A stretch of DNA of 64,000 bases from Zopfochytrium polystomum (lineage: Eukaryota > Chytridiomycota > Chytridiomycetes > Chytridiales > Chytridiaceae): the NCBI GenBank assembly GCA_025765615.1, contig JAIVFJ010000151.1, positions 62,001 through 126,000 of the forward strand, given 5' to 3'. The translations under genes and the position numbers were made by a program. Shown here piece after piece: positions 2,571-64,000 of the stretch. The stretch's first letter is position 1. Each line of letters starts with the position of its first letter. The notes beneath the pieces are model-generated. The model ran no database searches, was not told where the DNA came from, and was given only the letters and a program-made list of their open reading frames with translations.

Positions 2571-3868
2571 ATGGCGCAATCAGCCGCCAAAACGCCGACG
2601 ACGCCGCCGACGCCGCTCCTTCCGCCGGCGTCAAGCCTCGTCATCAAGCAGGTCGACCAGACGCAGTACGGCAAAGTCTTTCAAAAGTGGGCCGCAGAGC
2701 TCCTCTGGAACCCCGTAAGTTTCGAGAGTCTTATCTCCCACTCTCTCCCTCTCTCCCTCGCTCCCTCTGTATACTTTGCATATGTTTGTGCAAACGTGTG
2801 GCAACCTGCAAGGATATCAACGCCCTTAATACACCTGCCACTGCTGAGTGATGGAATAACAGCCATCTTCCACAGAGCGTCGACGATCCCGCGGTTCTTC
2901 CCCTCGCCGACCCCTCGGGCTTTTTTGTCGCGTACCTTGCGCGGCGTTTGCTGCCAGAGTCGGTGCTTCTTCCAGACGAGCACGGCGATGACGCGAGCGA
3001 GGAGGTGCCGGTCGCGTGCATCTCTGCCGTGCGGCACGACGCGCACAACGGGTTCATAGGGTTCTACATTGTGCGCAATGACAAGCTGCGCGGTGCTGGG
3101 TACGGGATTCGCCTATTCCGCGCCGCGATGGAGTACCTTGGAGCGGACCGGAACGCGGGTCTGGATGGGGTGGTCGCGCAGCAAGGCAACTACGCGCGGT
3201 CCGGTTTCGGAAGAGTGTGGGATACTTGGAGGTTCACGCTGACGCTCGACGCGGTAGGGACTGCTGCTGCCGCAGATCCCGCCGTCCCTGCCGGGCTCCA
3301 GGCGGCCAGGGTGGCCCTGGACGGGGTTGCAAGCATCGACGGCAAAAGCACCGTCGCTACGGTCAGCTCTGGCACTGGCGCTGTGATCAGCCTGGCTGCG
3401 GTGTCTGCTTTCATTGAGCAGCACAGCGGGTTTGCGCGGCGTGAGGCGTTCGTGGCCGCTTGGCTTTCGGCGGCAGCTATCGAGTCCACTGCGCTGGTGG
3501 ATGCGGCAAGCGGGCAGATTGTCGCGTTCGGAAGCATCCGGAAGGCTATCACGGGCTATCGCATTGGGCCTGTGTTTGCCGCCGACGCGGCGGCCGCCGC
3601 GCACGTTGTCGGCGCGCTTGTGGCTGTCGTCCGACGGCGCGAGAAGCTGCCGTCTGCTTCACCAAACCCGCAGCTACCGCTGCACCAGGAAACCAAGGTG
3701 TTTGCGGACGTCTGCATGTCGAACAAGTCCGCGCGGGAGGTTTTTGCTCGTGCTGGATTCTCGGACGCTAACGCATTCGTGTGCGGCCGAATGTTCACCA
3801 AGGGTAATCCGCTTCCTGACGCGGCGATAGGCCGGGTGTTTGCTGTGATGACGCTCGAGGTGGGCTGA
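2571..3868 (+). CDS. GNAT-family N-acetyltransferase, two exons
   Basis: Exon 1 is 2571-2714 and exon 2 is 2876-3868 (GT-AG intron 2715-2875), giving about 378 residues. The N-terminal half has a GNAT core: a strand reading GFIGFYIV followed by the acetyl-CoA pyrophosphate loop RGAGYG and a helix (IRLFRAAMEYLG). After it comes QGNYARSGF, similar to the segment in YitH-type GNAT proteins, and a second Ala-rich half that includes VCMSNKSAREVFARAGF, which resembles the C-terminal half of those two-domain proteins. The acceptor substrate is unknown. The start is the first ATG downstream of an A-rich stretch at 2520-2545. The preceding GH36 gene lies in tandem with only a short gap. Confidence 0.8.
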
Positions 3869-17042: not shown

Positions 17043-20000
17043 CTACTCCTGCTCGCGGGGCCTGTCGCGGACAGTCCTGCCATCCACATCTCCTCCTCCA
17101 CCTCCTCGTGCACACTCTTTGCAAGCGAGTCCGGTATTTGCCGCCAGCCCTTTCATCCCTTCAACGATGCCTTTGAGAACCTCAATCTCCTCCTCCAAAC
17201 TCTCGTTCTCTCTCTGGATGTCTTCCACGCTCTGCTCCAGCCCTTGGACCCAAAGCTTTCGCTTCTGGCGGCACTTCGACGCCGCCCTCCTATTGCGTTC
17301 GCGGAAGTCAAGGCGCCGGAGATGCGCCTGCGTCGTTGGAGACAGCGGCAGCGGGGTTCCAGATTGCTCCCTTTTCTGTGTCTGCTGCTGCTGCTGCTGC
17401 TGCTTCGGCTTCGGTTGCTGTTCCCCTCTGCGGCGCTTGCTGCCGTTGGTGGCCACCGACATCGACGTCTCTTGCAATGCTGGCGGGAAAGCGGTCGAAT
17501 CCGCAGTGTTCTCACCAGCTGAGGTGCTTTGCGCACGTCGGAGACGTTTAAACGAGGAGGTAGAGGACGCGGACGAAGACGGTGGAGTGTTCGATGCAAT
17601 TGATTCCGGCTTGGTACTGTGCCACTGACCGTCACTCGACTGCTGTTGAGGCGGCGTCAGAGGAGGATGGGGCCGCGCTTCTTGCGAGTGGCTTGATGAA
17701 AAGTCGCTGAAACGTGTGTGGGCAGACGTAAGGTGTGGAACCCCGACCACGGACGGGGTTTCGTTGAACAGAAGGGGATTCGTGGCCGAAACATCGGCTG
17801 AAGGTTCCGTTTTCAAAGGGAGGTCATCAAAGACCTCGCCGGGCCAGACTGGGGCTCGCGCTTTTGAGCTTTCGACGGTGCTGCCTTTGCCAACACTCCT
17901 CCTTTTACCACTGCTGGCGGTCCCGTTAAATCGTTTTCGACTGCTTGCCGGTGGTGGAGTCTCTCCTTCTCCGGTTGGATTGATGTCAACGTTCATCAGC
18001 ATCGTTCCTACTCTGCTTCCCCCTTCAACAAACTCTTCTGCGACAGTCTTGCCCAAAATTCTCCCGGGTTCGCTCTTGTTCGGCATCTCCTCATCGCCTT
18101 TCCGCGAGCGTTTCGCTGGAACTTGCACCTTAGGGCTGGACTCAACCGCGAAAGCGGGTCGCGATGCGATTGCTGAAGCCGTTCTGGCCGCCGCTGCAAC
18201 AAATGCGGCATCGCTGAAGTGGGCTGTTCCGAGTTTTTCGGAAATAGCTCCGATTGACGCCGGAGGGGAGGGTTCTTGACACGCGGACCCCACTAACGCG
18301 GGCTCTCTCTCAATTAACCCGGCACCGGAGCTAGTGACTGCCGCGTCGTCAATCGGTCCACGGACTAAAGGATCCGGTTGAGGTTGGAGAATTCGGGGTG
18401 AAGGCAAAAGTCGCAGGATAGGTGGAGATCTCAAAGAGGGAAGTGCAGTCGCGCCGATGTGTGACGGCAGTGCCAGCGACAAGACGCTAGCCTGATCTGG
18501 CGCTGGTTCCTGCTTCACAACAGGCTGCGGCAGACTGGTGAAAGTTGGAGGAGGGGTCGGTCCTGCGGTTGGTGGCAATTTAATCTTCGACGCCGCTGCG
18601 CCTCTGGAGCCACTAGGAATGGGTAAAATAGGCTTTGGGCTCATACTAAAACGAAGACTCCCCAGAAGTGGTAGTAATGGGGCAGGAGAGCGCGCTCCTG
18701 ATCCACCGGCACCCTGTCCAGAGGCTCCTCCACATGGTACAGGCTGAGCGTAATTAGTGTTTGCTCCGTTACTAGCAGAAGTGCTGCACGCCGTATCGGA
18801 GACAGAGACTCCAAAACTGTCTTCAAATGGATTTGGTTCCATATCCAGTAAAACGTTGGAGCAGGAGGCGAGGAATCTGTTGGGGGTGTGTTCAACTGTC
18901 GGCAGCGGAGCCGGAGAGATCCGAGGGGGAAAACCGAGAAGAGACGACTGGCTGAAAGCTGAAGTGGAACTTTCGGATGCAGACGGGGTGGACGAATGGA
19001 CGAATGAAGGTGGCATGGAAGAGTTGGGAACGGCGAAAGTTGGCTGCTCAAACTCTGATGGTTTCAACTGAGAATTTGGCTGGGCTTGAGGATTCGGTTG
19101 GACTTTCGGGCGTATGAAGGACAGGCTGTCAAGCCGAAGGGTATTTTTTCTAGCGTCTCCGAAGGAGGTTGACGGCGTGGGAGTCGTGGGCGACGACGAG
19201 GAAACTGTCCAGAATAGTTGATTAGCAAATGACGACAGCCAATTCAATCAAAAAAAAAGGACTCACAGTTGAGCACAGTACCGCCGGCACTCCCAGATCC
19301 TTCAAGCCCGCCTCTTGTGGCAACAGCGGTGACAGGCGATGTGGATACAGACACGCCAGTATTATATACGGCAAGATCTGAAAGCATCTTGGTGGCTGGG
19401 GAAGATGATCCTACTGGGGCGGCAGGCGCTGCTGTTGGTGCAAGGGGTATAGGCAGGGGCTGGGGAAAGCCATGGCTGATGGGCGAGGGAACTGCAGGCG
19501 CGGCAGAGGAGGTCGATGGAGAGGGCGAGGCTGGTGACACGGGAAGTCGCAGAGGTGATGGGAAGAATGAGTGGTATAGCGGTGTGACCTGAGGTGCCGG
19601 CTGCACCGCGGCAGGGCGATTCACGAGCGGTTGGGGTTGAAAGTATGACTGCTGGTGGGGCTGGTTGTTCACCAGATTTGGCTGCGGTGACTGCAGTGAC
19701 AATCGGGGGGCCTGGTAGCGCGGTGGGAAGCGAGCGACCGGCTGATACAGCTGTGACTGCTGCATGATAGGCCTCCGCGAATTCGCTGGAGTTGTTGCGG
19801 GTGGATTTGTGGGCGGAGTCGAAAGTGAGGTGGACGGAGAGGATGATGGCAAAGACGCCAACCGTGGGGAAGGAGAGGCATGTCCGGGCGTTGTCTGACG
19901 CGGGGAAGAGCCAGCAGTTTCCCCCATGGTGGGAGGAAGTAAGCTAGCTGCACTGTTCATGTCCGTTTCACCGTGCTGAACGGTGGATGGCTGCGACAAT

Positions 20001-56891: not shown

Positions 56892-58813
56892 ACCGGATTT
56901 CCCAGTCCCCTTTGGCTTTGGCTTTTGCCTCCCATTGGGCCAACACTGTGTCATGGACCAGAGCACCCTGCACATTCTTTGCTGGTGTGCCACCTTTTCA
57001 CAGTTGCCTTTGGTCTGAGTGTGAGAGTCTTCTCTTGTGTGTAGTAAGAGAGTTTCTTTGTGTTTCTTGGGCTGCGAGGACGACAGGCTGTTGAGCCTGC
57101 GACCTCAAATAAAAAGAGTATACCCTGCTTTTTTAACTGATAACTTGTGAGGATTATCAATTTGACTCGACCAAACAACTTTTCATGAAAGTGACGTAAC
57201 ATGGCTGGACCCCATTTCTTATTATTTTCATGGGTTATTATTGTTCCTGCAAGCCGAACCACTGAGATTTGGACTGTCTCTTAGCCACGGCCATGTATAT
57301 TATTCATGTTATTATTATGCACTAAGTTGCAGGCCGAATGGCTCAGGCCGCTCTGCACTACTGGCCAGAGGCCCTCTAGCTCAGTGTTGTAGAGCGCTCC
57401 CTTCAATGGGAAAGGTGCTAAGTTCGAGCATGCTGGCAGTCACTAACTGAAATGATGCAGAAATGCTAAGTTCTGCACAATGACTAAGCCTTGCCCCCCT
57501 CACTTTTGGAAATGGATTAGGATGATGTGCTTCAGTGGGTAGAAGTACAGAGTCCAGGTGTACACAGAGCTAACACAGAGCTGCTGCATAAGCTACCATG
57601 ATGAAAGGCCTCATGAAAGGGTATGAGATCATAGTGTTTTTTCTCCTGTCTTTATTGATGATTTTTACTTATTTTTCAATTAGTAGTTTATCCTGTTTTT
57701 CCTGTTTTTACTGTTTTATCTTTTATTTATCTGTTTGTTTGTTGTCTCTGTGTGTGTCTCTCTTTTCTTTTGTGGCTGTGAGTGACTGTCTTCCTCTTTG
57801 CACCAATCAGCCCTCCCCATCTCCTCCATCTTTCTTGGCAGCTGATGCCAAGAGATGCTCCATGATTTTCTGAGCTGTCTTCCTTGTTTGATGACTCAGC
57901 CCCATTGGGGTTCAGACCCTCTTCCTTTCATGCTTATACCTGTGGTTCTCTTTGGTGTCTTCCTTGTGTGTGGGAGTGGGTATTGACCTTCCTTGCTTCC
58001 AAGACAGGTTATTCTCTCTGGCCTGGTGAGGCAGAGGTCTGTCTCCTGGTAGGATGAAGCAAGAAGAGTCCCACTGTCTCCCACCCTGGTTGCACCCTCT
58101 TCCTTGGATTGAGTTGGAACACTCTCCTTGGAGTGAGACAAGTTGTGTCTGGTTCTGTTAAGTGGAAAACAGTTCTGATTTGGTTCAACAGGCACCTCTG
58201 CACACTAACTGTTCCTTGTGTTTGCCCTTTGTGTCCAACCCCCTCCAACTCAGGGTTTGACTTGTTGTTTATTTCTTTTGTTGTTTCTTTTGATGGGTTG
58301 TAGTGGCTTGTCACTCCCCTTACCAATTCAGTCGGTCTTACCGATCCAATCGGTTCTGTCTCTGGTCTAACTGGGCTTTGGCCTTGTGCCCCAGATGAAA
58401 CCCTTCTGTGTCTTGCGCCAGAGGATTATGCTTTCTTTTTGATTGTGTCTGTTTTATGCTTTGGTGTGAGAAACCCCTCTTTTGTGTTAGAGATTTATTT
58501 GTGTTTTTCTTGGGCTTTTTAAGACTCCAAATACACTTTCCTGTCTAGTGCCCCTAGACACCCTCCTTTTGCCCCTTTTCATTAGCAGGATTGGTATTTA
58601 GGTCCATGCTCTAGTTTCCACCTATAGCCCTAGGTGAGGAGTTAGAGAGCACAGTCTCACAGGGCTTCTTAAGTCTCCAAATACATTGTCCTGTCTAGTG
58701 ACCCCTAGACATCTCCTTTTGCCCTTTTTCACTTTTCAGGATTGGTATTTAGGTCATTGCTCTATTTGCCACCCATAGCCCAGGGTGAGGATTTGGAGAG
58801 CACAGTCTCACAG
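56892..58813. repeat. repeat region inverted relative to 22.98-25.15 kb
   Basis: Runs parallel to the reverse complement of the left repeat block: 56892-57070, 57074-57120 (ACGACAGGCTG...GACCTCAAATAA, as at 25130-25160), the SINE-like unit, 57680-57905 and 58110-58260. It ends with two tandem copies of a roughly 150-bp unit (58510-58662 and 58663-58813), both closing in GCACAGTCTCACA. Confidence 0.65.
57370..57631 (+). mobile_element. tRNA-derived SINE-like element, copy 2
   Basis: The head has a near-perfect Pol III A-box (TAGCTCAGTGTTGTAGAGC, 57377-57395) and a B-box-like AGTTCGAGCAT (57421-57431), followed by about 200 bp shared with the minus-strand copy at 24625-24892. It ends near GGGTATGAGATCA and is followed by T-rich sequence. 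Confidence 0.6.
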
Positions 58814-59881
58814 GCGTAAATCAGACAGGTGCGACAGCGAGGTTTGCTCCCATAAACGGAACGAGGGGAGCACTGCAGGCATGGGGACCAGGGGACGGAC
58901 CGTGGGCTGGCAGTGGTGGAGCAGGCAGTACGACTGTACCTTTGGTAGCGGACGTCTGAGTGTCAAAGGTCGAGGCATGGTATCCACAAAGTAGGAGGAC
59001 GCAGCCAGAGGGGCTGGCTGAGCTACCCAGCTGGGGGCTGCGGAGGCAGAAGTCAACTGCGTGGTGGGGGCAGTCAGTGACATGGTCATAGCCGTGGGGG
59101 CCGAAAAAGCAGAGCGTGAGGAAGCGCCAACGTGGGGGTTGGTGGCCTCTGGAAGTCGGTACGAGCAAGAGATTCCTGAAGCGACAAATTAGACAACCTT
59201 CTATGTGGGAAAAGGCTTGTGAGGAACTTTCTGAAGCTGGAGTGAAGTGACAAGCAGATTAACAAGCAGACAAAATCAATGCGATATAGTCCATACTAGA
59301 TGCCAACTCCAACACCTCAAAGCATTGGAAAGGCACGAGGAAAAGCTGCTGAATTGACTGCAATTCCAGTAACGAGGAGCAGACTGGGAAAAAAATTCCC
59401 CAGTTTGCGCCTCTGCATCTGACCCAGCAGAACACTCAGACAGCATGGTATATGAATTGATGGAAGCCAGGGAGGAAGTGCAAATTCTTCCACACTGAGC
59501 AGCTTTGCGTGATGTAACAAATGTTCAACATTTTGTGTTCATCAATAAATTATTTCGAATCTGTGGGTGGTGTGCTGTGTGTAGGTGGCGTGGATGTGGT
59601 AGTTTCAGCTTCATTCATTTCTCTAAAATAAACCTCACTAATGGGAGCTCATTTCAAGTATTGTGCTCTTCAGAGCGGTGGCAGTGGTGACAGTGAGCCA
59701 CACATAACAGAGGGCGCACTTCTACTGCAGAGGTTAGCAACAGCAGCAGCGCAGCACCGCAACACTAAGAAGTGGTGCATCCAGCAGGTTCGTCGACAGG
59801 CAACGTGGAGCAGGCCTTTTTGTTGAAGCAAGGGCACTCCCATCGCGGTCGTTGTTTTCTCGTCCAAGACAGATACACGAA
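58814..59881. other. intergenic stretch without recognised genes
   Basis: Minus-strand frames at 58821-59168 are Pro/Ser/Leu-rich without motif. The AT-rich portion 59170-59640 shows nothing definite. The last 200 bp before 59882 may be promoter/5' UTR. Confidence 0.4.
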
Positions 59882-60304
59882 ATGGGCGCCGCCGCTTCCA
59901 GGTCCGCCGTGTGGTCCACAATCGCATTCGACGTCGCCCTCAATGCCGCCGGCTTCGCGTGCTCGGCTTACTACCAGACGGAGCACTACTTCGACATGGT
60001 CGGCACGTCGTCGTTCATCAACTGCTCGGTAGGCTCTGTTCCTTTAAATTCCCCCACACGTCTCTCGAGCCTTTGCGCGGTTGACACCCCAGGCGTCGCG
60101 CTCCACAGCCGCCAGATCTTCCTCCTGGCCACGACGTCTCTCTGGGCCGGTCGTCTCTTCCAGTTCCCGACGGCTCGCGTCAAGCGGCTCGGCGGCGACG
60201 GCCGGTTCGACGCCATCAAGACCAAGCCCGCCCGCCGCGGGGGACGAAGGGAAAAAAAAAAATTATTTTTTTCTCAGTTCTTGCTGAAACCCGCGCCCGG
60301 ATGA
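59882..60304 (+). CDS. truncated DUF1295 / steroid-reductase-like membrane protein fragment
   Basis: ATG 59882 opens a frame of 140 codons. The segment HYFDMVGTSSFINC and then FLLATTSLWAGRLFQFPTAR...GDGRFDAIKTKP match the first conserved blocks of the DUF1295 family (yfDltGs, WalRLg.fLf, DkRFdei). Family members are multi-pass membrane proteins of about 250-300 residues. Here the frame runs into a basic stretch and stops, and no later DUF1295 block is found before the GAGA repeats, so this looks truncated. A possible intron at 60029-60092 (GTAGGC...CCAG) would not keep the frame, so I read through. Confidence 0.55.
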   Translation: MGAAASRSAVWSTIAFDVALNAAGFACSAYYQTEHYFDMVGTSSFINCSVGSVPLNSPTRLSSLCAVDTPGVALHSRQIFLLATTSLWAGRLFQFPTARVKRLGGDGRFDAIKTKPARRGGRREKKKLFFSQFLLKPAPG

Positions 60305-60396: not shown

Positions 60397-60990
60397 TTTG
60401 TTCAGTCTCTGTCTGTCTCTCTGTCTCTCTGTCTCTCTGTCTCTCTCTCTCACGCTTCTTCACACAGACACATGCACACACACACACACACACACTCTCT
60501 CTCTCTCTTTTCTCTCTTTTTCTTTTCCTCAGGGCTGAGCACGCTTGCATCCGCGCAATGTTTGGCGAGGTTTGGGCGAAGACCCCACATGCCCGCCGGC
60601 ACTGCGGCATGGAAAAAAGGAGGGGTGAAAAAAAAGAGAAAGAGACAGAGAGCGAGAGAGAGACAGAGACAGAGACGAGAGAGGGAGAGAGAGCGAGAGT
60701 GAGAGTGAGAGAGAGGAGAGACAGAGGAGAGACAGAGAGAGAGAGAGTGAGAAGGAGAGAGACAGGGAGAGCAAGAAAAGGAAAATATTACTCCCGCCAG
60801 GAAAAATCGAATTCGGACGCGTCAGCCAGACAAATTTTTTACGTTTTGTTGGATTTCTCGTTGGACGTTCAACAAGGAAAGAAAACGAGAAATGTTTCCG
60901 TGTCCGCAATTCGTCCGAGAGAGAGAGAGAGAGACAGACACAGACGGAGACAGAGAGAAAAAAAAAGGTGGAGGAATTAAATTCACAAAC
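60397..60990. repeat. TCTCTG, CA and GAGA simple-repeat cluster
   Basis: CT/TG-rich array 60403-60452, CA array 60472-60494, CT 60495-60530, then GA-rich repeats 60640-60770 and 60916-60960. These lie between the DUF1295 fragment and the ATG of the next gene. Confidence 0.85.
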
Positions 60991-61032: not shown

Positions 61033-64000
61033 ATGCCTCAGCCGCGGCCGCAGCCGACGCACCGCTCGGGGTCCCTGCGCCGCCGCCGTCGTCGGAATCT
61101 CCGCGGCGACGGCGACGGCAGCTGCAGCAGTAGCAGCGACTTTGTCGGCGACGACGACCGCGAGCTCGACGACGACGACGACGACGACGGCCGAGGGGCG
61201 CGGCCGTCGCGGCCGGAGGATGGCCGGCGGCGACGGCCAGGGCGGCGGCGCGCAACGGGGCGGGCGGCGAGCTCCGCCACCACGCGGACGGGCGTCCGCG
61301 GCGGCATCCGCAACTCGCTGGCGCTGCTGCTGCTCGTGGCCGTCCTCCTCGTCGTCGTCGTCGTCGTTGCAACGTTCGCACCGCACGCGGCGGTCCAGGC
61401 GCTGCCGGCAAAGGGCGACGGCGGCGGCGGCGGCGGCGATCCGCCCGCGACGCGGTGGGAAATTGCAAAGGACGCCGGGAGGAAGGTAGAGCGTGTGTGG
61501 GGCTTTGTGTGTGTGGGACTGAGCAGCCGTGCGTTCCGTTCAGGTTGTGCCGCACGCGTGTGGAAGACACAATTGCATTCGATCACAACAAACTAAAAAA
61601 AAAAAAAAAATAACCAAAAACAAAAATTCTCGCATGTACACAAAAAATGCAACAAAAAAAAAAAAACGAAAAAAAAAAACATACACACTCTCCCTCACAC
61701 AGGTCGCGACGACGGCGGCCAAGAACGGCCTGACGATCGCAAAGGGCGCGGCGCAGACGGCCGTGCACGGCGCAGTCGCAGTCGTCGCGGGCGAGCCAGG
61801 TGATTAATTACACTGATATGTGTGACATTCATTCCCCATTTCCATTCATACCGACGCCAATCACCAAAATAACCCAGCGGCCACGGTCGCCAAGCTCGGG
61901 ACGGGCGCCGTGCTCGGCGCCGTCGAGGAGACTGCAAGGAGCGCGTACAAGGGCAAGCCGCTCAAGGGTTCGTTCGGGTCATTCGCTTCTGTTCTTCTTC
62001 TCACGCGCAACTCTCCCTCCCCCTTTCACTCAACGATCACCATTCAACCGTCACACTGAATCATCCCCGCAACGACCAACAACAACAGAGATTGGCCCGG
62101 CGGTTTTGGGTAACGCCGTGACGAGCGCGGGCGCAGCGTGGCCCGTCACGAGTTGAGTACATAGCTGTTTCTATTTATTTTTCGTTTTCTATTTTTTTTC
62201 TTTCAATTTTACTCACACACGCACACACGTACATATGCACACACGCACGCACGCACACTCACACTCACTCACACACACACACACTCTCTCTCTCACTGTC
62301 TGTCTGTCTCTTTCTCGTTCTTTAACAACAACAACAACAACACGCACCAAGATCCTGTCCGCATCGGCCTGTCGACGCTCGGTGGCAATCTTAAAGGCGG
62401 CGGCGGGCCAAGGGCAATGCTGCGCGCTGTGAGTGTCCGTCCCTGTCTGTCATCTCTCGTCGTTTTTGGATTTTGTTCTCACGCCAATCTTGTCCTTCCC
62501 ACGAAAACAACAACACGCATTAAAATAAAATAAAAAAAACAAACAAACCCAAAAAAAAACAAAAAAATAGGCCGGCTCCGCGGCGGTCGCTGTCGCAAAC
62601 AAGATGGTTCCTGCGGCGGCCGCGCGCGCCGCGGCGAATGTAGGAGGGCCGGCCGGTGCGTGTTTGACCACGTCATGCTGTTCTACTTGCTAATAGTCGT
62701 ATTGCATTGTTTTCTTTTCTTTTACTCAACACACTGCACAAAAAAACAAAAAAACAAAAAAACAAAAAAAAAAAACAACCAAAACCTAACACATAACAAA
62801 AACTATACTTTTTTTTTAAGCCGGCCTGACCGCCGGCCTGGGCACCGCCATCGCCATGGGCGCCGCACAGGGCGCGTACAACGGCTACAAGAACAACAAG
62901 CCGCGCAACGGTGAGAGAGAGAGAGAGAGTGTGTGTGTGTGTGTGTGCATGTGCCCGTTAGCGAGCGAGCGAGTCAGCAAACGGGATCGCATATCAGCAG
63001 CAGAACAGCTGATTCCCCTCTCTCTCTCTCTCTCTCTCATTTCCTTTCCTCGTTCACAACAAAACAAAACAAAACCAAAAAAACACAAACGATTCAAAAA
63101 ATATAATAAACAATAGAGGTGCTCCGGCAGGCTGTGGCAACCGCCGGCTCGGTCTCGGCGGGGATTGTGCCCGGCGGTGGTGAGTGGGAGTGCGAGTGGG
63201 AGTGAGCGGAAAAAGGGAACAAGCGGGAAGAGGCGCACGAGAGAGGAAGAGAGAGCATTGAGGGGGAGAGCGGGGAGCGAGGGGTAGTGAGTGAGTGAGT
63301 GACTGAGTAAGAGAGAGAGAGAGAAAGACTGAAGGGTGGGGTGTTTCTTGTCTGTGAATCACTCTTTCCCTTCTTGCGACTAAACAAACACACCACACGC
63401 ACACATGCACGCACACACACTCATCACTCATCACACACTCAGAAATGGTCAAGCGCGGCATCAAGGCTGCGGCGTCCGCCGTCAAGAGCGGGAGCCCGCC
63501 GTCCAGTTGAGTGCCTGCGTGTGCGATCGTGTGCGGCGTCGATCGCGTCCGATTCCACAAAGAAACAAGCACTGACAAAAACAAACTATTTCTTCCCCCT
63601 GCTGTGCCAAAAACATATCTTTAAAGAAATCGCGCAGGACGCGGCCCTGCATGCCGCAGGCGGCGCCGCCAGCCAGCACCTGAAAAAGAGCGGCGTCTTG
63701 CCAGGTATTATACACCCCCTTGTTCTTTTCTGTTCTTGTCGCCAATTTTTTTATGTCGTCCCTCTCTGACAGATTCACGCACACACACACACACACACAC
63801 ACTCACACTCACACCCGTAACACACACAAAAAACACAACAAAAAAAAATAAGGCAAGCAAGCCAAAGCCGTCGGCAACGCCGTCACAAACATCCTCACGG
63901 GCGCCCGCGACGTCATCGCCGGCCCACGCAAGCTGCCCTACGCCGCTCGCCAGGCGAAAAAGGCCTGGCGCGACGACGACAAGGCTGGCGGCAGCAACCC
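61033..64000 (+). CDS. novel membrane-anchored Ala/Gly-rich protein made of many tiny exons, 3' end outside window
   Basis: Eleven exons splice in one frame: 61033-61485, 61703-61799, 61878-61967, 62089-62151, 62352-62428, 62571-62655, 62821-62910, 63117-63179, 63443-63505, 63627-63704, 63853-64000 (open at the edge). Exon 1 encodes a basic head, an Asp tract and a transmembrane segment (SLALLLLVAVLLVVVVVV). Exons 2 onward encode Ala/Gly-rich amphipathic modules of 20-32 residues. Exons 3 and 7 are both 90 nt and similar (LGTGAVLGAVEETARSAYKG; LGTAIAMGAAQGAYNGYKN); exons 4, 8 and 9 are all 63 nt, and 8 and 9 begin with a Glu codon split in phase 1, as does 4. Nearly all introns are phase 1 and stuffed with CA, GA or A-rich tracts. 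No known family recognised. An alternative in-frame ATG lies at 60892 in GA-repeat DNA. Confidence 0.68.

What the first reader, a model, noticed from the sequence alone, without database searches (positions are those of the whole stretch)
61033..64000. Gene assembled from repeated micro-exons of identical length and phase
Exons 3 and 7 are both 90 nt and encode similar Ala/Gly amphipathic modules; exons 4, 8 and 9 are each exactly 63 nt and mostly start with a phase-1-split Glu. Nearly all modules are symmetric 1-1 exons, so any number can be duplicated without frame loss. Introns between them are filled with microsatellites that could promote unequal exchange. With a membrane anchor and an Asp tract in exon 1, this looks like a lineage-specific, length-variable protein family.
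Basis: partly seen in the sequence, partly recalled or inferred. Interest (0 to 1): 0.75.

Follow-up and report, generated by a model that had tools for sequence, protein, structure and literature searches.

The report
Chytrid gene family with duplicated exon block
A chytrid fungus carries a small family of otherwise unknown genes whose many short exons look like two copies of one ancient four-exon block, and sister copies show that parts of this exon array have since been lost; what the proteins do is not known.

Summary
The exon model holds up; the evolutionary story changes. The window lies in the chytrid Zopfochytrium polystomum. Gene A has 11 exons and ends 280 nt past the window. A tandem paralog starting 8.2 kb downstream has the same 11 exons: exons 2-10 have identical lengths and 84-98% identity, while introns are 52-67% identical. 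At least nine loci of this family were found in the genome; subfamilies are about 40% identical, yet many exon lengths are kept to the base. Three capped protein searches returned only this species' proteins, or nothing. Exons 3 and 7 are homologous, and so is the whole run: exons 2-3-4-5 align with 6-7-8-9 (hhalign P 9e-8). This indicates one ancient four-exon block duplication; exons 4, 8 and 9 are not shown to be three copies of one exon. The array does vary between copies: extra exons 5b/5c in some, and one copy lost exons 7-9 at a 9-nt exonic microhomology. Microsatellites are abundant only in introns of A and B among six copies measured. Proposed product: a secretory-pathway protein with an Ala/Gly-rich, probably helical core and Lys-rich tail. 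Splicing and function are untested.

The parts
61033..61485 (+). Exon 1 (453 nt): Arg-rich start, Asp tract (A only), hydrophobic segment, TRWEIAK motif shared with other copies as TRWDILK
61703..61799 (+). Exon 2 (97 nt, phase 0-1), first exon of block copy 1
   Evidence: 97 nt in 8 of 8 modelled loci
61878..61967 (+). Exon 3 (90 nt, 1-1), counterpart of exon 7
62089..62151 (+). Exon 4 (63 nt, 1-1), counterpart of exon 8; weak donor GTTGAG
62352..62428 (+). Exon 5 (77 nt, 1-0), counterpart of exon 9; corresponds to exons 5, 5b and 5c of copies C, D and G
62571..62655 (+). Exon 6 (85 nt, 0-1), first exon of block copy 2, counterpart of exon 2
62821..62910 (+). Exon 7 (90 nt, 1-1), counterpart of exon 3
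63117..63179 (+). Exon 8 (63 nt, 1-1), counterpart of exon 4
63443..63505 (+). Exon 9 (63 nt, 1-1), counterpart of exon 5
63627..63704 (+). Exon 10 (78 nt, 1-1)
63853..64000 (+). Exon 11, window part; continues to the equivalent of 64280 (428 nt in all), low-complexity Lys/Gln/Gly-rich tail ending KKTKKRR

Best explanation
The window holds one member of a multicopy protein family of Zopfochytrium polystomum. Its core arose when a run of four exons (now 2-3-4-5) was duplicated once, with intron phases kept, to give exons 6-7-8-9. The gene was then copied around the genome, and the array changed in frame because most of its junctions share phase 1: exons 5b and 5c stand between the halves in one subfamily and are missing or fused in others, and one copy lost exons 7-9 in a single deletion. 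Functional proposal, inferred only (about one chance in four): the hydrophobic segment near the N-terminus sends the protein into the secretory pathway; the Ala/Gly-rich core forms helices, roughly one per exon, that pack on each other or on a membrane; the Lys-rich tail binds an acidic partner such as wall polymer. Shown: exon boundaries conserved between paralogs, exon homology, several loci, one deletion junction. Inferred: transcription, splicing, secretion, helices, function. The confidence given is for the gene architecture and its origin, not for the function.
For: Paralog B keeps all 11 exons, with exons 2-10 equal in length. Core dN 0.046-0.054, dS 0.17-0.22 between A and B over 262 codons; C-D core 0.022 and 0.080 by NG86. 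Exon 2 is 97 nt in 8 of 8 modelled loci, exon 7 90 nt and exon 8 63 nt in 7 of 7 that have them. Half 1 against half 2: hhalign probability 94%, P 9.3e-8 over 101 columns with one one-residue gap. In-register total of four exon pairs z 8.0, and z 5.4 without 3-7 (0 of 5000 shuffles each); colinear pairing ranks 1 of 120. Deletion junction in F.
Against: No RNA evidence. Pair 4-8 is weak (109 of 5000 shuffles reach it) and 5b-10 is not significant (920 of 5000). The 2-6 pair was scored end-aligned, so one search is not fully independent. The profiles are shallow and Ala/Gly-rich. On a 158-codon subset A-B dN/dS is higher (0.060/0.126). Copies E, F and I show broken or slipped frames, so F's deletion is in a copy that may be decaying. 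The fold model had pLDDT 36.
Confidence: 0.7

Rival explanations
1. One reading: single micro-exons (3/7 and 4/8/9) were duplicated repeatedly by unequal exchange promoted by intron microsatellites, giving a rapidly length-variable protein.
For: Equal exon lengths and shared phase 1; exons 8 and 9 show some similarity (90 of 10000 shuffles in gene A; z 1.9); A's introns are 17% microsatellite, more than 40 of 41 window bins.
Against: Similarity is colinear over four exons; in C, D, E, F and G exon 4 is 66 nt; microsatellites are 0-7% in C, D, G and H; A and B do not differ in exon number.
Confidence: 0.1
2. The exon-to-exon likeness is only shared Ala/Gly composition, without common descent.
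For: The core is about 40% Ala+Gly and most of the 55 module pairs are not significant.
Against: Shuffles that keep composition are exceeded for 3-7 and 5-9 in register, and by the whole block.
Confidence: 0.07
3. Gene A is a decaying or untranslated copy and the family is mostly pseudogenes.
For: E has a stop in exon 4, F a broken frame in exon 1 and I a slip in exon 6; A and B were not among the proteins returned by the searches.
Against: A and B are open through 11 exons with dN/dS about 0.25-0.28 over 262 core codons.
Confidence: 0.1

Closest known systems
Micro-exon genes (MEGs) of schistosomes (PMC4350168, passages read)
   Same: Short symmetric exons behind an N-terminal signal-like exon; skipping keeps frame; lineage-specific family.
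   Different: Per that paper MEGs have most of the coding region in very small symmetric exons and appear restricted to platyhelminths. Here internal exons are 63-97 nt in A and make up 706 of 1587 coding nt; the symmetric ones 447 of 1587.
Tropoelastin (PMC7947355, passages read)
   Same: One module per exon, low-complexity Ala/Gly/Lys-containing protein.
   Different: No alternation of hydrophobic and Lys cross-linking domains was established here, no Pfam match, and no isoform evidence.
SP7-like effectors of arbuscular mycorrhizal fungi (PMC11333574, passages read)
   Same: Fungal, lineage-specific, N-terminal signal, repeat region that follows a conserved intron.
   Different: [quoted passage not shown] here the modules are Ala/Gly-rich, on separate exons, with a two-fold block repeat.

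Membership tests
Schistosome micro-exon genes | Most of the coding region in very small symmetric exons | tested here: not met
   Symmetric exons are 6 of 9 internal exons and 447 of 1587 coding nt in gene A
Schistosome micro-exon genes | Isoforms by alternative splicing | not testable with these tools
   No RNA data; exon 4 is absent from 5 of 5 NCBI models, whose basis is unknown to me
Schistosome micro-exon genes | Sequence relationship to MEG families | not tested
   No MEG protein was compared
Tropoelastin | One domain per exon | tested here: met
   Exon-bounded modules; met in form only
Tropoelastin | Recognisable sequence relationship | tested here: not met
   No significant Pfam match in 4 of 4 members scanned (best E 0.014, Vac7, 1 member); no PDB sequence match. 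Elastin itself was not compared directly
SP7-like effectors | Tandem hydrophilic repeats with conserved end island | tested here: inconclusive
   Mean hydropathy of modules lies between -0.79 and 1.00, so not uniformly hydrophilic; no SP7 sequence was compared

The most novel reading that the evidence does not exclude
A chytrid-specific secreted structural protein family whose isoforms are made by in-frame exon skipping, with exon 4 a conserved cassette exon (donor GTTGAG in A, B, C and D; exon 4 absent from 5 of 5 annotated models): an elastin-like, splice-tuned matrix protein that arose separately in an early-branching fungus.
Probability: 0.1. Interest if true: 0.65.

Novelty: new member of a known kind. 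Interest (0 to 1): 0.4.

Why it matters
It is a readable case, in an early-branching fungus, of a protein core built by duplicating a block of exons and then changing the array in frame, with about nine loci of different ages in one genome and one preserved deletion junction. Exon lengths are often kept to the base while protein identity falls to about 40%, so exon structure marks the family better than sequence does. If isoforms are made by exon skipping, it would also bear on splicing-based protein variety in fungi.

Tried and rejected
Fold prediction from the five annotated proteins: mean pLDDT 36.4, pTM 0.24; no fold search was made with it. PDB sequence search with the core profile: 0 matches. 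Pfam on 4 members: nothing significant, best E 0.014 for Vac7 in 1 member. Protein search with gene A: 0 of 7995 scored candidates. That is a sensitivity limit, since C-type queries found this species' own proteins: 5 hits among 7996 scored and 3 among 7996. Exons 4/8/9 as one repeated exon: not supported. Pairing 5b with exon 10: not significant. Dilysine ER-retrieval reading of A and B's KKRR end: dropped, since C and D end KSKK and P0004 ends KTKK; the rule itself is recalled. Locating annotated protein P0001 (NCBI contig of 220467 bases) in the held assembly: a 35-base exon-8 pattern with up to 2 mismatches matched only C and D. Papers: the species name is in 2 papers of the library (listing only); a search for symmetric exons, exon duplication and fungi together returned 1 paper, which I judged unrelated from its listing. 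I make no wider claim about what is in print.

Full report
Where it is. The window is part of an 80.2 Mb genome. Annotated proteins found by similarity belong to Zopfochytrium polystomum (Chytridiomycota), and three of their contig lengths (534328, 181824 and 562279) equal those of held contigs C19, C135 and C16; a fourth (220467) was not located. A bZIP gene with an Aft1_OSA domain in the window fits a fungus.

The gene. I read exons and introns from the sequence and tested them against a tandem paralog, B, that starts 8.2 kb downstream on the same contig. Both have 11 exons and GT-AG introns. Exons 2-10 have equal lengths and 84-98% identity. Exons 1 and 11, low in complexity, are 66-67% identical and differ in length. 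Introns are 52-67% identical in aligned columns, and 9 of 10 differ in length. Over 262 core codons dN is 0.046-0.054 and dS 0.17-0.22 by three methods; on a 158-codon subset NG86 gives 0.060 and 0.126. The reading frame is under selection and the splice model is sound, though no RNA was seen.

The family. Searches of the same genome found further copies: C (C110), D and F (C19), E (C135), G (C16), H and I (C130); nine loci with A and B. A degraded partial copy lies beside G, and isolated exon-9-like pieces lie on C84 and C303. C and D have 13 exons: A's exon 5 corresponds to exons 5, 5b and 5c there. In G all 11 exons after exon 1 that I placed have the same lengths as in C; its last exon was not modelled. 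H lacks 5b and 5c and has a 99-nt exon 6 of phase 1-1. Exon 2 is 97 nt in 8 of 8 modelled loci and exon 3 is 90 nt in 8 of 8 (F's length inferred from its flanks); I was not modelled. Exon 7 is 90 nt and exon 8 is 63 nt in 7 of 7 that have them. Exon 9 is 63 nt in 6 of 7; E has a 78-nt exon there that seems to fuse parts of 9 and 10. Core identity between A and C is 42%. E has a stop in exon 4, F a 293-nt exon 1 against 315 in D that breaks the frame as I modelled it, and I an apparent slip in exon 6.

Internal homology. Of 55 module pairs, 3-7 stands out (z 7.2, 0 of 1000 column shuffles, offset 0 over all 30 residues); next is 5-9 (z 3.2, 4 of 1000, offset 0). Together they suggest a block: 2-6, 3-7, 4-8, 5-9. 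Profile comparison of exons 2-5b with 6-10, six sequences on each side, aligns 101 columns at P 9.3e-8 with a single one-residue gap, and the exon junctions fall opposite each other. Scored in register, the pairs give z 3.1 (2-6), 6.1 (3-7), 2.2 (4-8), 4.1 (5-9) and 0.9 (5b-10). The four-pair total has z 8.0, and z 5.4 without 3-7 (0 of 5000 each), and the colinear pairing is the best of 120. The end-alignment of 2 with 6 was chosen. Intron phases repeat: 0-1, 1-1, 1-1, then a phase-1 start. I conclude that one block was duplicated. In A the shared 63-nt length of exons 4, 8 and 9 mixes two different pairs (4 with 8, 5 with 9).

How the array changes. Copy F matches D on both sides of a 477-nt gap that removes exons 7, 8 and 9; the join lies in CCAGTTGGT, which is shared by the end of exon 6 and the end of exon 9. 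The joined exon (88 nt) ends in phase 1, so the downstream frame is kept. F's exon 1 is broken, so this shows how the array can be cut, not that the shorter protein works. It is the only junction resolved. Microsatellites make up 17% and 20% of intron bases in A and B, and 1.1%, 0%, 6.6% and 0% in C, D, G and H, so they are probably a late feature of the A/B pair.

Splicing hints. Exon 4 has the weakest donors of 12 exon positions (mean 2.5 of 6 matches to GTRAGT; GTTGAG in A, B, C and D; exon 9 of A and B has the same donor). In 5 of 5 NCBI models exon 4 is left out. Against reading much into this: those models also leave out other exons (P0002 lacks 5c, 6 and 7; P0003 lacks 5c to 9; P0004 lacks 9 and 10), and I do not know whether they rest on RNA. 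Each other exon from 2 to 11 appears in at least one model.

Function. A strong hydrophobic segment lies near the N-terminus in A, B, C, G and H (Kyte-Doolittle 2.45-3.42); B, C, G and H also have weaker core peaks of 1.4-1.64, so membrane contact by the core is not excluded. Gene A's core is 40% Ala+Gly. By eye a Pro lies within the last four residues of 8 of 9 internal exons in A, and of 6 of 11 in C. The tail is rich in Lys in A-D. AlphaFold gave mostly helices at very low confidence. A secretory-pathway protein with a self-packing helical core and a cationic tail is my proposal, at about one chance in four.

Known relatives. No significant Pfam match and no PDB sequence match. Three protein searches, each scoring about 8000 candidates out of 5.8 billion sequences, returned only this species' proteins or nothing. 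Because one search missed copies now known, restriction to this species is provisional. In kind the gene resembles schistosome micro-exon genes (PMC4350168) and tropoelastin (PMC7947355), but it fails the micro-exon definition by the share of coding sequence in symmetric exons (447 of 1587 nt).

Noticed in passing
L009:3033-6280 against L011:1214-4330: A-B introns (52-67% identity) look far more diverged than the exons' dS of 0.17-0.22 predicts, whereas C-D introns (968 of 1054 identical) match their dS. Exon gene conversion, fast microsatellite turnover or misalignment could explain it.
   Followed up: partly
L037 and L038 (C130): Copies H and I are 98.5% identical over 4352 aligned bases in opposite orientation on one contig: a recent inverted segmental duplication.
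   Followed up: partly
L036 (reverse strand about 911-1350) and L039:3901, L040:3514: Degraded partial copy beside G and isolated exon-9-like pieces on C84 and C303, probably relics of lost copies.
   Followed up: no
window 59882-60255 +: Just upstream of the gene, a short DUF1295-like exon (E 0.0029, below Pfam's cut-off) that runs into low-complexity sequence; it may be a truncated gene.
   Followed up: partly
window 60635-60771 and 58512-58814: A 137-base AG microsatellite and a 151-base unit in two tandem copies upstream of the gene.
   Followed up: no
L009:6830-7900 and L011:4920-5480: By eye, similar non-coding stretches follow both A and B; a dispersed repeat or part of the duplicated unit.
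   Followed up: no
window 17043-19247 -: bZIP transcription factor with an Aft1_OSA domain.
   Followed up: no
window 2948-3868 +: GNAT acetyltransferase (Acetyltransf_18, E 1.3e-12).
   Followed up: no
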